Source: Leptotrichia wadei (GTDB lineage: Bacteria > Fusobacteriota > Fusobacteriia > Fusobacteriales > Leptotrichiaceae). Taken from it: a stretch of DNA of 64,000 nucleotides. Of the stretch, positions 9,865 through 15,875 are shown in pieces. Positions within the stretch are counted from its first letter, which is position 1. Each line of letters starts with the position of its first letter. Below the pieces are notes generated by a model that saw only the letters and a program-made list of their open reading frames with translations, made no database searches and was not told where the DNA came from. The position numbers were made by a program, and so were the translations under genes. The stretch is from contig NZ_AP019829.2 in assembly GCF_007990545.2 (NCBI RefSeq), positions 682,001 to 746,000 of the forward strand, written 5' to 3'.

Positions 9865-10281
9865 AAATTTTGAAGAAGAGAGATGGTAAAGATGAAATTA
9901 TTAAAAAAATCTATGTTAGTATTGTCTGCAATGACACTAATTGGAGGAATGAGCTTTGCTGCTGCAACAAAAACTGAAAAAAAAGCAGTTGCTAAAAAAA
10001 CAGTTACAAAAGTTGTAAAAAAACCAGCTGCAAAAACTACAAAAAAACCAGCTACAAAAGCTGCTAAGAAATCAGCTGTAAAAGTTGCAAAAAAACCAGC
10101 TGCAAAGGCTGCAAAAAAATCAGCCGCTAAATAAAAACAAATTTTGAAGAAGAGAGATGGTAAAGATGAAATTATTAAAAAAATCTATGTTAGTATTATC
10201 TGTAATGACATTAATTGGAGGAATGAGCTTTGCTGCTGCAACTAAGACTAGAAAAAAAGCAGTTGCTAAAAAAACAGTAGC
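9865..10281 (+). repeat. Tandem duplication of a promoter-distal leader plus signal-peptide coding segment
   Basis: About 140 bases starting near 9865 and again near 10139 are almost identical. They cover the ribosome-binding site, start codon, signal peptide and the beginning of the Lys/Ala linker of two adjacent small genes. The copies diverge after the linker. Confidence 0.85.
9892..10134 (+). CDS. Secreted Lys/Ala/Pro-rich repeat protein (linker-only paralog)
   Basis: The small protein of about 80 residues has a Sec signal peptide (KSMLVLSAMTLIGGMSFA, cleavage likely after SFA). The mature part is made only of repeats such as KKPAAK, KKPATK, KKSAVK and KKSAAK. It would be highly basic and unstructured. 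It has no globular domain, whereas the next gene has the same leader plus an MliC-like domain. It may be a tandem duplicate that lost its domain and expanded the repeat, or a basic periplasmic or surface protein in its own right. The start at 9892 is 9 bases inside the longest frame, which begins at 9883. Confidence 0.6.
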   Translation: MKLLKKSMLVLSAMTLIGGMSFAAATKTEKKAVAKKTVTKVVKKPAAKTTKKPATKAAKKSAVKVAKKPAAKAAKKSAAK

Positions 10282-10522
10282 TAAAAAAGTTGCTTCAGAA
10301 TCTTACACTTGTGGTTCTGAAAAAATAAGAGTTGTATATCCAACAACAAAAACTGCAAGAGTAACAACTAAAGCTGGAAAAGTCTATAATTTAAATGTAG
10401 CAGTATCAGCTAGTGGAGCAAGATATGTTTCTAAAAATGGAAATATTGAATTTTTCAAAGGCGGAAAAGATGCCATTTATAGAGGACCTAATGGTATTGA
10501 AAAATCTTGTACAAAAAGATAA
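10166..10522 (+). CDS. Periplasmic MliC/PliC-like lysozyme inhibitor with Lys/Ala linker
   Basis: The product has 118 residues: signal peptide (cleavage after SFA), a short basic linker to about residue 44, then a domain of about 70 residues. This domain matches the MliC fold pattern: Cys49 in YTCG, KIRVVYPTTKTARV, the hallmark SASGARY (81-87) in the loop that plugs the lysozyme active site, a FFKGGKDAIY strand, and Cys115 near the end, which can pair with Cys49. MliC proteins protect peptidoglycan from c-type host lysozyme. The usual lipobox is absent, so it would be free in the periplasm (PliC type). The family call is from motif recognition only. Confidence 0.72.
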   Translation: MKLLKKSMLVLSVMTLIGGMSFAAATKTRKKAVAKKTVAKKVASESYTCGSEKIRVVYPTTKTARVTTKAGKVYNLNVAVSASGARYVSKNGNIEFFKGGKDAIYRGPNGIEKSCTKR

Positions 10523-12532: not shown

Positions 12533-13609
12533 ATGGAAAAAAATTTCACGAAGGATGGGCTTATTCTTTTGAATAAAAGTAAGGGAGTAAGTTCATTTGC
12601 GGCAATTAATGAGTTAAAGAGAAAAATAAGGGCTAAAAAGGTCGGTCATGCGGGAACATTGGATCCGATGGCTGAAGGACTTATGATTGTTATGATTAAT
12701 GATGCAACAAAATTTTCTGATGACTTGATGAAAAAGGAAAAGGAATATTATGTTGAAATGGAACTTGGATACAAAACTGATACTTATGATCTGGAAGGGA
12801 CGGTCGTTGAAAGATATGAATCTGAAATAAGTGTAAGCAATGCTCAAATAATAAAAGTTATAAATAGTTTTAGAGGGAAAATAAAGCAAATTCCGCCAAT
12901 GTATTCAGCAATAAAAATAGACGGGAAAAAACTTTATGATTTGGCGAGAAAAGGTGTGGAAGTTGAAAGAACAGAAAGAAATGTTGAAATTTCAGAAATT
13001 AGAAAAATAAAAATTATTCGTCCAGATAAAAATTCAAAAGATGCTCGAAATATAAAAATTTCATTTTATGTAAAAGTTAGCAGTGGAACTTATATCCGTT
13101 CTCTAGTTTACGATATTGGGGAAAAATTGGGAGTTTTTGCTACGATGACAAGGCTTGTGAGAACTAAAATTGGAAGATTTGAAATTGAAGATGCGATTGA
13201 TTTGGAAAAGGCTGAAGCTGAAATTGATAAATTGAAGGAATTAGTGGAGGCTAAAAGAGAAAGTGAGTCATTTTGGGCTACAAAGAGTGATGCTGCTATA
13301 AGAGCTGAAAAGATTAGAGAAATAGTGTGTTTTGTTGAAATAGAATATGTGCTTGACTATTTCGGGATAAATGTTTCCAATGAGAAATATGGAAAATTGA
13401 AAAATGGAATGACAGTTATTGACACATTTAAAAAATTTGAAAATATAAGTAAAGAAGTTAATATGAGAAAAAACATTAAAGAAAATCAGAAATTTAAGAT
13501 TTATGTGAGAAATAAAAATACAAATGAACGGGAATTTCGTGGAATTGTAAAAATTGTAAATATTAAGGGAGATAGAATTTATTTAAAAAGAGATAAATAT
13601 TTTTTGTAA
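12533..13609 (+). CDS. truB: tRNA pseudouridine(55) synthase
   Basis: The 358-residue TruB has the catalytic-loop motif GHAGTLDPMAEGLM (Asp nucleophile) near residue 40, the substrate motif GKIKQIPPMYSAIKIDGKK and the SGTYIRSLVYDIGEKL motif. It makes pseudouridine 55 in the T-loop of tRNAs. The C-terminal 130 residues are longer than in minimal TruB proteins and end in a beta-rich piece that may be a PUA-like domain. The start at 12533 follows GGAAGG; the frame itself begins at 12515. The next gene starts 33 bases downstream. Confidence 0.93.
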   Translation: MEKNFTKDGLILLNKSKGVSSFAAINELKRKIRAKKVGHAGTLDPMAEGLMIVMINDATKFSDDLMKKEKEYYVEMELGYKTDTYDLEGTVVERYESEISVSNAQIIKVINSFRGKIKQIPPMYSAIKIDGKKLYDLARKGVEVERTERNVEISEIRKIKIIRPDKNSKDARNIKISFYVKVSSGTYIRSLVYDIGEKLGVFATMTRLVRTKIGRFEIEDAIDLEKAEAEIDKLKELVEAKRESESFWATKSDAAIRAEKIREIVCFVEIEYVLDYFGINVSNEKYGKLKNGMTVIDTFKKFENISKEVNMRKNIKENQKFKIYVRNKNTNEREFRGIVKIVNIKGDRIYLKRDKYFL

Positions 13610-13642: not shown

Positions 13643-15226
13643 ATGAAGAAGTCAAATAAATATGTATTTGATATCGAAGTTTTTCCAAATTATTTTTGTA
13701 TTGTGTTGAAAAAGTTGAATGATGAAAAAATATTGATTATCGATTCAGATAATTTTAATCGTCAAAAAAAACTTTTATATAGAGTCATTTCAAAAAACGT
13801 GTTAATTTCCTATGGAGGACACAGTTTTGATGATATTGTAATTAATGACCTTTTAAAATACAGAAATTCAAATGTAAATAGAAATAAATTAAACAGTGAA
13901 ATAAAAATAATAAGAAATATGCCAAAAAATGAATATAAAAATGAAAATCACGAATTCAATTCGTATGACTTGGCTTATGAGTATAGTTTAAATCTTGGAG
14001 TAAAGGGGTTTGAGTTTAATTGTGGAGATAATATTGAAGAGCAGGATTTTGCCAACTTTAATTATGTAATAAAAAAAAATATATATGATAAGATTGTTGA
14101 TAAGGTAATTGATTACTGCATACAGGATGTTTTGGCAACTGAAAAAATGTATAATTTTATAATTTCAGAAGAAAGTAACTGGGATGAAAAGGAAAACTTG
14201 TTAAATATACTTACAAATGGCAATTATAGCAATAATATGAAACTTAAAAGGAAAATAAAATATTTAAATTATAATAATGACAAACTTGTGACCATGCTTT
14301 TGGATCAAAATTCTGATAATTCTAGCCAGTCTAAAATAAATTATTCTAAAAGGATGAAGATGGATGATTATGATAATTATCTTCAAAAAAAAGTATATGA
14401 ATTAACAATAAAAAAAGACCATTTGTATGAGTGGCTGCTTGAAAATAAAATATTTTATGAAAAGGATAAAAATATAATAAAAAAAATACCGAAAGATTTG
14501 CTTTTAAAATCATCATTTGTAAAAGATGTTTTAAATAGATATAGAATAAGTATTGTAAAAAGAATAAAAAGAGTTTTTGCAAGAGAAGGTATTGAAATGG
14601 TGGGAGCATCAGAAAATGATATTTTTATAACAAATGTAACTGATGAACTTTTAAGTAAAATAAAAAACAAGATAAATCATCAATATCAAGATATTTTTTT
14701 AATAAGAGATATTGATAAATTTTTAAAAAATAAAAGTTCTATTTTGTATAAGGTGAATGATAAAGTTAAGGGCATCAATGAATATCACTACAGCAAGTTA
14801 ATTATGCCAAAAAATCATAAATGGATTTCAGAAATTTTAAAATTATATTTTTGGGAAAAACAGGAAATAGAAACAGCAGTAAGAAAAGTTTTTTCAGAAA
14901 ATCCTGATATATTCTTTATGTATGCTTCTGTTTACGAAGACATTTATGCTTGTGATGAAAATGGAAAAATGGAATTTGAAAGTAATAAAGTGCTAGATAA
15001 GTTTAGAAAATATCGGCTATATTTTTCAAAAACGGGATTGTATAAGGTTGTTATTCGTAAAGATGAAAAATATTATGAAAAATATGGTTTTGGAGATATT
15101 AACGATAATTTATATAAAGTGAGGAACGTTGAAACAAGCGTAAATGAATTTGAAAATTATGAGGATATTGACTTGAAAAGCTATATTGACTATACTCAAA
15201 ATTATATAGAAAAATATTTTGAATAA
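13643..15226 (+). CDS. DEDD-type 3'-5' exonuclease-like protein of unknown role
   Basis: The 527-residue protein opens with an exonuclease fold typical of proofreading domains: ExoI-like DIEVFPNYF (residues about 10-18), ExoII-like YGGHSFDDIVINDLL (about 57-71) and ExoIII-like YCIQDVLATEKMY (about 155-167, Tyr-x3-Asp). These give the four acidic residues and the Tyr of a DEDDy nuclease. The rest, about 340 residues, is Lys/Asn/Tyr-rich and not recognised. No polymerase motifs are visible. The exonuclease part is most like those of phage or family-A/B polymerases, so it could be phage-derived. It lies directly after truB and ahead of ruvC, which has its own promoter. Confidence 0.6.
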   Translation: MKKSNKYVFDIEVFPNYFCIVLKKLNDEKILIIDSDNFNRQKKLLYRVISKNVLISYGGHSFDDIVINDLLKYRNSNVNRNKLNSEIKIIRNMPKNEYKNENHEFNSYDLAYEYSLNLGVKGFEFNCGDNIEEQDFANFNYVIKKNIYDKIVDKVIDYCIQDVLATEKMYNFIISEESNWDEKENLLNILTNGNYSNNMKLKRKIKYLNYNNDKLVTMLLDQNSDNSSQSKINYSKRMKMDDYDNYLQKKVYELTIKKDHLYEWLLENKIFYEKDKNIIKKIPKDLLLKSSFVKDVLNRYRISIVKRIKRVFAREGIEMVGASENDIFITNVTDELLSKIKNKINHQYQDIFLIRDIDKFLKNKSSILYKVNDKVKGINEYHYSKLIMPKNHKWISEILKLYFWEKQEIETAVRKVFSENPDIFFMYASVYEDIYACDENGKMEFESNKVLDKFRKYRLYFSKTGLYKVVIRKDEKYYEKYGFGDINDNLYKVRNVETSVNEFENYEDIDLKSYIDYTQNYIEKYFE

Positions 15227-15240
15227 CATATACGGATATC

Positions 15241-15269
15241 TTGCATACAAACTTTAGGTATGATATAAT
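15241..15269 (+). promoter_or_regulatory. Promoter for ruvC
   Basis: TTGCAT and TATAAT are separated by exactly 17 bases. The -10 box lies about 37 bases upstream of the ruvC ATG. Confidence 0.65.
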
Positions 15270-15305: not shown

Positions 15306-15875
15306 ATGAGAATTTTAGGAATAGATCCTGGTACAGCAATAGTGGGATACGCTGTTGTAGATTATGAAAATGGTGATTATACTCCACTTGATTATGGATG
15401 TATTTTTACAGATAAGGATGAGGATATGCCTATTAGGCTGGAAAAAATTTATGATGGACTAGAAAATATTATAAAACTCTGGAAGCCAACAGATATGGCT
15501 ATTGAAGACTTATTTTTCTTTAAAAATCAAAAAACAGTAATAAAAGTAGGACAGGCTCGTGGAGTAATAACTTTAGCAGGACAAAAAAATAAGCTGAATT
15601 TATATAGCTATACTCCGCTTCAAGTAAAAATGGGGATTGCAAGTTATGGAAGAGCTGATAAAAAGCAAATTCAGGAAATGGTAAAGCTAATATTAAAGTT
15701 AGATGAAATTCCAAAGCCTGATGATGCTGCAGATGCACTTGCAATCGCAATTACTCATATCAATTCCAAAATAGGATTTGGTGGATTTAACAGAGGAGAT
15801 AACATTACAAAAAAATTAGATAAAATTACTTCTAATCGAATAAAACTAGAAGACTATAAAAGATTAATGAAATAA
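15306..15875 (+). CDS. ruvC: Holliday junction resolvase
   Basis: The 189-residue RuvC has the four acidic catalytic positions: Asp7 in GIDPGT, Glu67 in MAIEDLFF, and Asp139/Asp140 with Asp143 in KPDDAADALAIA. The motif FKNQKTVIKVGQARGV is typical. RuvC cuts four-way junctions as a dimer with RuvAB. Here it is separated from ruvA and ruvB, which are not in the window. An AAGGAG site precedes the ATG, and a good promoter sits upstream. The gene is followed after 42 bases by trmL in the same direction. Confidence 0.96.
   Translation: MRILGIDPGTAIVGYAVVDYENGDYTPLDYGCIFTDKDEDMPIRLEKIYDGLENIIKLWKPTDMAIEDLFFFKNQKTVIKVGQARGVITLAGQKNKLNLYSYTPLQVKMGIASYGRADKKQIQEMVKLILKLDEIPKPDDAADALAIAITHINSKIGFGGFNRGDNITKKLDKITSNRIKLEDYKRLMK

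What the first reader, a model, noticed from the sequence alone, without database searches (positions are those of the whole stretch)
13643..15226. Stand-alone DEDDy exonuclease-like protein with a large unknown C-terminus between truB and ruvC
The N-terminal third has the three exonuclease motifs with four acids and the ExoIII tyrosine. The remaining 340 residues match nothing I recognise and show no polymerase motifs. It could be a repair, RNA-processing or defence nuclease, or a domesticated phage gene.
Basis: partly seen in the sequence, partly recalled or inferred. Interest (0 to 1): 0.6.

Follow-up and report, generated by a model that had tools for sequence, protein, structure and literature searches.

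The report
Dead viral polymerase kept as exonuclease
All sequenced species of this oral bacterial genus (Leptotrichia) carry, between two housekeeping genes, the remains of a virus-type DNA-copying enzyme whose copying centre has decayed while its DNA-trimming centre is perfectly preserved, so it most likely now serves the cell as a stand-alone DNA-end trimmer.

Summary
The 'unknown' C-terminus is not a new domain. Profile-profile alignment is collinear over the whole protein with phage family-B DNA polymerases (PHROG 1252, crAss-like kind): 481 columns, E 4e-22; the C-terminal part alone beats all 400 shuffles. A model built without phage sequences retrieves only family-B polymerases among its 50 best PDB matches. 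Motifs A and B are gone, the motif C aspartate is asparagine (N325), the GxGG/H linker is deleted. Purifying selection is strong (dN/dS about 0.06-0.13), strongest on the exonuclease. All 13 Leptotrichia genomes carry it between truB and ruvC (one copy frameshifted); sister genera have truB-ruvC without it. Best reading: a phage-type polymerase captured by the genus, polymerase-dead but exonuclease-competent, acting as a 3'-5' DNA exonuclease. The cellular role is not shown. New variant of a known kind: described inactivated PolBs usually lose the exonuclease or both activities.

The parts
13643..15226 (+). CDS, 527 aa: polymerase-dead, exonuclease-competent family-B DNA polymerase derivative
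   Evidence: ORF; full-length profile alignment to phage PolBs over 481 columns, E 4e-22
13643..14170 (+). N-terminal DEDDy 3'-5' exonuclease domain, residues 1-176
   Evidence: PHROG 1252 E 2.3e-17; hhalign of residues 1-215 E 7e-20 to 7e-22; model pLDDT mostly 79-93 over residues 1-90
13664..13678 (+). ExoI motif VFDIE (catalytic D10, E12)
   Evidence: invariant in family and phage PolBs
13829..13831 (+). ExoII catalytic D63 in SYGGHSFDD
   Evidence: invariant
14114..14128 (+). ExoIII motif YCIQD (Y158, D162)
   Evidence: invariant
14171..14392 (+). Shortened, poorly modelled linker, residues 177-250; the phage GxGGxHx motif between exonuclease and palm is missing
14393..14782 (+). Relic palm, residues 251-380; motifs A and B not recognisable
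   Evidence: secondary-structure order helix-strand-turn-strand-helix-strand; hhalign and MAFFT alignment
14609..14620 (+). Motif C remnant SEND (residues 323-326) at the place of phage NTDG; catalytic Asp replaced by N325
   Evidence: N325 is Asn in all 12 Leptotrichia orthologues
14783..15223 (+). Thumb-like C-terminal domain with conserved R458, Y460, Y514
12533..13609 (+). truB, upstream neighbour (33-base gap, probable same transcript)
15306..15875 (+). ruvC, downstream neighbour; TTGCAT-17-TATAAT (extended -10) at 15241-15269 suggests a promoter of its own (read directly from the sequence; not among the scan's hits)

Best explanation
The gene is a captured phage-type replicative DNA polymerase of family B (crAss-like/HelPrimPolB kind, PHROG 1252). 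It has lost DNA synthesis (motifs A and B lost, motif C Asp to Asn, linker deleted) and is maintained as a 3'-5' exonuclease. Proposed mechanism: two metal ions held by D10, E12, D63 and D162, with Y158 orienting the attacking water (established chemistry of DEDDy exonucleases), remove nucleotides from frayed or single-stranded 3' DNA ends; the relic palm and thumb remain as a DNA-binding platform, so the enzyme is in effect a polymerase locked in editing mode, used to trim 3' ends in repair or recombination. Shown here: homology, loss of polymerase motifs, conservation of exonuclease residues, purifying selection, genus-wide fixation at one chromosomal site. Inferred: exonuclease activity, DNA rather than RNA as substrate, the scaffold role, the repair role.
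For: Exonuclease motifs invariant in family and phage PolBs. Full-length collinear hhalign to 30 phage PolBs, 481 columns, E 3.9e-22; residues 216-527 alone score 36.4 against a maximum of 27.1 in 400 shuffles. With the smaller set of 20 polymerases the C-terminal score was 30.2, against at most 25.0 in 400 shuffles and at most 20.1 for non-polymerase phage protein profiles. A model built only from 13 family sequences gives family-B polymerases as its 50 best PDB matches, and three of the five BFVD matches with E below 1e-4 are named phage DNA polymerases. Strand-turn-strand hairpin with N325 at the turn, as in motif C. dN/dS 0.01-0.08 in the exonuclease, 0.05-0.31 in the relic palm, about 0.06-0.13 overall. 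13 of 13 Leptotrichia genomes, at truB-ruvC, with empty sites in sister genera.
Against: No biochemical or expression data. One of 13 species has a single-base frameshift in an A-rich run, so the gene may be dispensable, or this is an assembly error. C-terminal homology is invisible to plain HMMER and rests on profile-profile and fold evidence; the models are of modest confidence (mean pLDDT 54 and 65) with low TM-scores, and the second model's alignment included viral polymerases. A crAss-only polymerase alignment gave no C-terminal signal. Motif A placement differs between alignments. Archaeal PolB2, once called inactivated, proved to extend primers (PMC8764526), so motif loss is not proof of inactivity. 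The direction of transfer (phage to host) is inferred from distribution only.
Confidence: 0.7

Rival explanations
1. Anti-phage function: the protein acts during infection as a nuclease on phage replication intermediates or as a dominant-negative decoy that occupies primer ends or replisome partners of phages using related PolBs.
For: Derived from a phage replicase family; C-terminal parts evolve faster than the exonuclease; placed at a spot where a sister genus has another inserted gene.
Against: No PADLOC family above chance; neighbours are housekeeping genes; present in every species of the genus at one fixed site rather than patchily.
Confidence: 0.15
2. The exonuclease acts on RNA, for example 3' trimming of structured RNA, in keeping with the truB neighbour.
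For: DEDD exonucleases include RNases (established knowledge); truB is 33 bases upstream and probably in the same transcript.
Against: The whole protein is a DNA polymerase derivative; truB-ruvC adjacency is found without it in sister genera, so neighbourhood is weak evidence.
Confidence: 0.1
3. Purely structural, non-catalytic role (partner of another polymerase or repair complex), as proposed for other inactivated PolBs.
For: Precedents: archaeal PolB2 and the C-terminal half of Pol epsilon (PMC2527604, PMC2669801).
Against: All exonuclease catalytic residues are invariant, and the exonuclease is the most constrained part, unlike archaeal PolB2, where ExoI is not conserved (PMC2527604, PMC7544198).
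Confidence: 0.08
4. A non-functional relic in slow decay.
For: Polymerase domain already degenerate; one frameshifted copy; AT-rich (23.5% GC against 28.7% in the window).
Against: dN/dS far below 1 in every pair and region, with whole-gene dS of 0.4-1.0; intact exonuclease residues in 12 of 13 species and in a second family.
Confidence: 0.05

Closest known systems
Phage family-B DNA polymerases, PHROG 1252 (crAss-like and HelPrimPolB groups of Kazlauskas et al. 2020, PMC7544198; placement by homology to crAss-like phage polymerases)
   Same: Collinear domains over the full length; identical exonuclease motifs plus conserved D109, K121, T166; conserved R458, Y460 and Y514 in the thumb-like part
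   Different: Motifs A and B lost, motif C D to N, GxGG/H linker deleted, 527 aa against 547-768 aa for the single-chain phage polymerases fetched; bacterial chromosomal gene
Inactivated archaeal PolB2 and bacterial G2 group (PMC2527604, PMC7544198)
   Same: A conserved family-B polymerase derivative with disrupted polymerase motifs in cells
   Different: There the exonuclease is disrupted (ExoI not conserved, ExoIII missing) and a motif C Asp remains; here the reverse. PolB2 later proved active as an extender (PMC8764526)
Inactivated C-terminal module of Pol epsilon; Pol alpha and Pol zeta exonuclease domains; poxvirus F12 (PMC2669801, PMC7544198, PMC4304020)
   Same: Family-B modules kept after loss of an activity
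   Different: In the Pol epsilon C-terminal module and F12 the polymerase module is inactivated; in Pol alpha and zeta the exonuclease is. None described in the passages read is said to keep only the exonuclease
Pfam PF10108 DNA_pol_B_exo2 (predicted exonuclease related to the PolB exonuclease)
   Same: Cellular protein with a PolB-like exonuclease without an active polymerase
   Different: No significant match here; PF10108 is absent from all 13 Leptotrichia genomes; its 213-position model covers an exonuclease only

Membership tests
Active family-B DNA polymerase | Motif A DxxSxYPS | tested here: not met
   No such motif; aligned position is D244 (D/N/S across the family) by MAFFT and about there by hhalign, or K/Q257 by hand and predicted structure
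Active family-B DNA polymerase | Motif B KxxxNSxYG | tested here: not met
   Conserved phage K, N and G positions hold D/E/N/I, K/N/Q/D and V/A/L in the family (alignment A4)
Active family-B DNA polymerase | Motif C with catalytic Asp (phage NTDG) | tested here: not met
   Asn in all 8 family rows of A4; N325 invariant in all 12 Leptotrichia rows
Family-B DNA polymerase by descent (PHROG 1252 group) | Collinear exonuclease, palm and thumb homology | tested here: met
   481 columns, E 3.9e-22; C-terminal part alone z about 7 against 400 shuffles; Foldseek top matches
DEDDy 3'-5' exonuclease | DxE, D, YxxxD catalytic set | tested here: met
   D10, E12, D63, Y158, D162 invariant
DEDDy 3'-5' exonuclease | Metal-dependent 3'-5' exonuclease activity | not testable with these tools
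   needs a biochemical assay
Archaeal PolB2/bacterial G2 inactivated polymerases | ExoI not conserved and ExoIII missing, one motif C Asp kept | tested here: not met
   Exonuclease intact, motif C Asp lost; definition from PMC7544198 and PMC2527604
PF10108 DNA_pol_B_exo2 | Match above Pfam cut-off | tested here: not met
   No match
Known anti-phage defence protein | PADLOC family match | tested here: not met
   Only a stray E 0.0018 hit in one of 12 members

The most novel reading that the evidence does not exclude
A bacterial genus has turned a phage replicase into a dedicated 'editing-locked' enzyme that seizes and degrades the 3' ends of phage replication intermediates, a domesticated counter-polymerase used in defence.
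Probability: 0.12. Interest if true: 0.75.

Novelty: new variant of a known kind. Interest (0 to 1): 0.5.

Why it matters
The decayed family-B polymerases described in cells mostly concern loss of proofreading or of both activities. Here selection appears to have discarded synthesis and kept the proofreading centre, in a bacterium, from a phage-type replicase, fixed in a genus. That gives a natural test of whether an exonuclease with a relic palm and thumb still works on DNA ends alone, and it suggests that phage polymerases can feed host nucleic-acid metabolism. It also explains a conserved gene that the curated protein-family libraries searched here leave unnamed.

Tried and rejected
Direct searches: Pfam, NCBIfam and PDB sequence searches gave nothing significant; tblastn against phages and plasmids gave nothing for the window protein. 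HMMER with the C-terminal profile does not separate polymerases from other phage ORFs, so plain sequence search cannot carry the C-terminal claim. The crAss-only polymerase alignment gives no C-terminal signal (score 17.7); the signal needs a diverse polymerase set. MAFFT alignment A5 places N325 at motif B instead of motif C; hhalign, A4 and the predicted hairpin agree on motif C, so A5 was not used for motif claims. A weak second hit in G012 (E 3.5e-4) lies in a methyltransferase-like ORF and was dismissed. The idea that the gene replaces a PF10108 exonuclease lost in Leptotrichia was rejected: PF10108 occurs in only one of 98 Fusobacteriota genomes. DnaQ-like (RNase_T) exonucleases show no clear compensating loss. 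The idea of a functional link to ruvC or truB was weakened by sites without the gene in sister genera. Alignment A4 could not be folded because the tool does not take phage-collection sequences; a set using viral-contig sequences was folded instead.

Full report
Observation. The ORF is present exactly as stated (13643-15226, + strand, 527 aa). The exonuclease motifs are correct: VFDIE (D10, E12), SYGGHSFDD (catalytic D63) and YCIQD (Y158, D162). A search of the taxonomic family finds a single intact copy in 12 of 13 genomes of the genus (56-92% identical; genus named as Leptotrichia by the genome-contig loci L015 and L016), and a frameshifted copy in the thirteenth. Alignment of the 12 shows all catalytic residues invariant.

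Family. Pfam, NCBIfam and PDB sequence searches give nothing significant. PHROG 1252, DNA polymerase, matches residues 2-277 with E 2.3e-17, and all 12 orthologues match it. In 98 Fusobacteriota genomes the family profile finds the 13 Leptotrichia and one further genome, G049, in another family of the order. The G049 protein (560 aa) is 31% identical over the full length and lies among chromosomal genes (uracil phosphoribosyltransferase upstream, flavodoxin and a ThiF-like protein downstream, named from their sequences), at a different locus.

What the C-terminus is. Phage proteins with the same exonuclease (L025, 624 aa; L030, 638 aa; phiST9-C, 577 aa) are complete family-B polymerases with motif A DxxSxYPS, motif B KxxxNSxxG and motif C NTDG. 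L025 is closely related to crAss-like phage polymerases. Profile-profile comparison of the family with 20 phage polymerases aligned the N-terminus at E 7e-20 and the C-terminal residues 216-527 on their own at score 30.2 over 190 collinear columns; 400 column shuffles reached at most 25.0 and 32 non-polymerase phage protein profiles at most 20.1. With 30 polymerases, including Staphylococcus-type ones, the C-terminal score rises to 36.4 (shuffle maximum 27.1, z about 7), and the full-length family aligns over 481 columns, profile positions 1-526 to 4-615 of 639, E 3.9e-22.

Fold evidence. A model from the 13 family sequences alone has low overall confidence (pLDDT 54), but residues 250-360 stand at block means of 68-88 and show helix 294-314, strand 318-323, strand 326-330, helix 334-346, strand 352-357, the order expected around motif C. 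Its 50 best PDB matches are all family-B polymerases, with phage DNA polymerases among the best BFVD matches. A second model that includes viral polymerases (pLDDT 65, with residues 1-90 at about 79-93) gives archaeal PolBs at E 3e-8. TM-scores are low, as expected for models with unconfident domain packing, so the fold claim is moderate and leans on agreement with the sequence profiles.

Polymerase centre. In the alignment that agrees with hhalign, the motif C Asp is Asn in every family member, the motif B Lys, Asn and Gly are replaced, and the GxGG/H linker is missing. The motif A position is uncertain (D244, variable as D/N/S, or K/Q257), but the motif is absent either way. DNA synthesis is therefore very unlikely; a caution is archaeal PolB2, which was called inactivated and later found to extend primers (PMC8764526).

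Selection and history. Pairwise dN/dS (NG86) is 0.01-0.08 in the exonuclease, 0.05-0.12 in the linker, 0.05-0.31 in the relic palm, 0.03-0.19 in the thumb-like part and 0.06-0.13 overall. In all 13 Leptotrichia genomes the gene lies between truB and ruvC. In sister genera the two genes are 97-154 bases apart (G003, G017, G020), or the gap holds a glutamine amidotransferase (G002) or about 700 bases without a long ORF (G021). The gene therefore most likely entered an existing cls-truB-ruvC neighbourhood; the neighbourhood itself says little about function. Its GC (23.5%) is below the window mean (28.7%), compatible with foreign origin. The G013 frameshift is a single-base loss in an A-rich run with the rest of the frame intact: recent loss or assembly error.

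Mechanism and role. The most economical account is a polymerase locked in editing mode: the exonuclease cuts 3' ends, the relic palm and thumb hold DNA. Activity, substrate and role (repair, defence, RNA) are inferred; repair or recombination end-trimming is my first choice, defence the most interesting alternative. No known defence family matches.

Comparison. Inactivated family-B polymerases are a known kind (PMC2527604, PMC2669801, PMC4304020, PMC7544198). In archaeal PolB2 both centres are disrupted; in Pol alpha and Pol zeta the exonuclease is inactive; here only the polymerase is. I found no paper describing this family; the search covered open-licence papers only. The related cellular exonuclease family PF10108 does not match it and is absent from Leptotrichia.

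Limits. Phyla outside the Fusobacteriota could be searched only with one pattern-based scan that finds close relatives, so wider distribution is unknown. No expression or activity data exist here.

Noticed in passing
L049 8655..10415 (G095 C1): A 586-aa ORF fuses a PF10108 PolB-like exonuclease (E 1.4e-67) in frame to an RmlD-like dTDP-4-dehydrorhamnose reductase; it is the only PF10108 protein in 98 Fusobacteriota genomes.
   Followed up: no
L213 1269..1994 (G002): In a sister genus a class-I glutamine amidotransferase sits in the same truB-ruvC gap, so this gap looks like a tolerated insertion site.
   Followed up: partly
window 9883-10522: Two adjacent small ORFs share an almost identical signal-peptide-like start (MVKMKLLKKSMLVLS); one continues as a Lys/Ala-rich histone-like repeat, the other as a different domain with cysteines.
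   Followed up: no
L013 (G013), codon about 256 of the gene: Single-base frameshift in an A-rich run in one of 13 Leptotrichia species; the rest of the frame is intact.
   Followed up: partly
window 15241-15269: TTGCAT-17-TATAAT with extended -10 TG just before ruvC: ruvC probably has its own promoter, separate from cls-truB-exonuclease.
   Followed up: no
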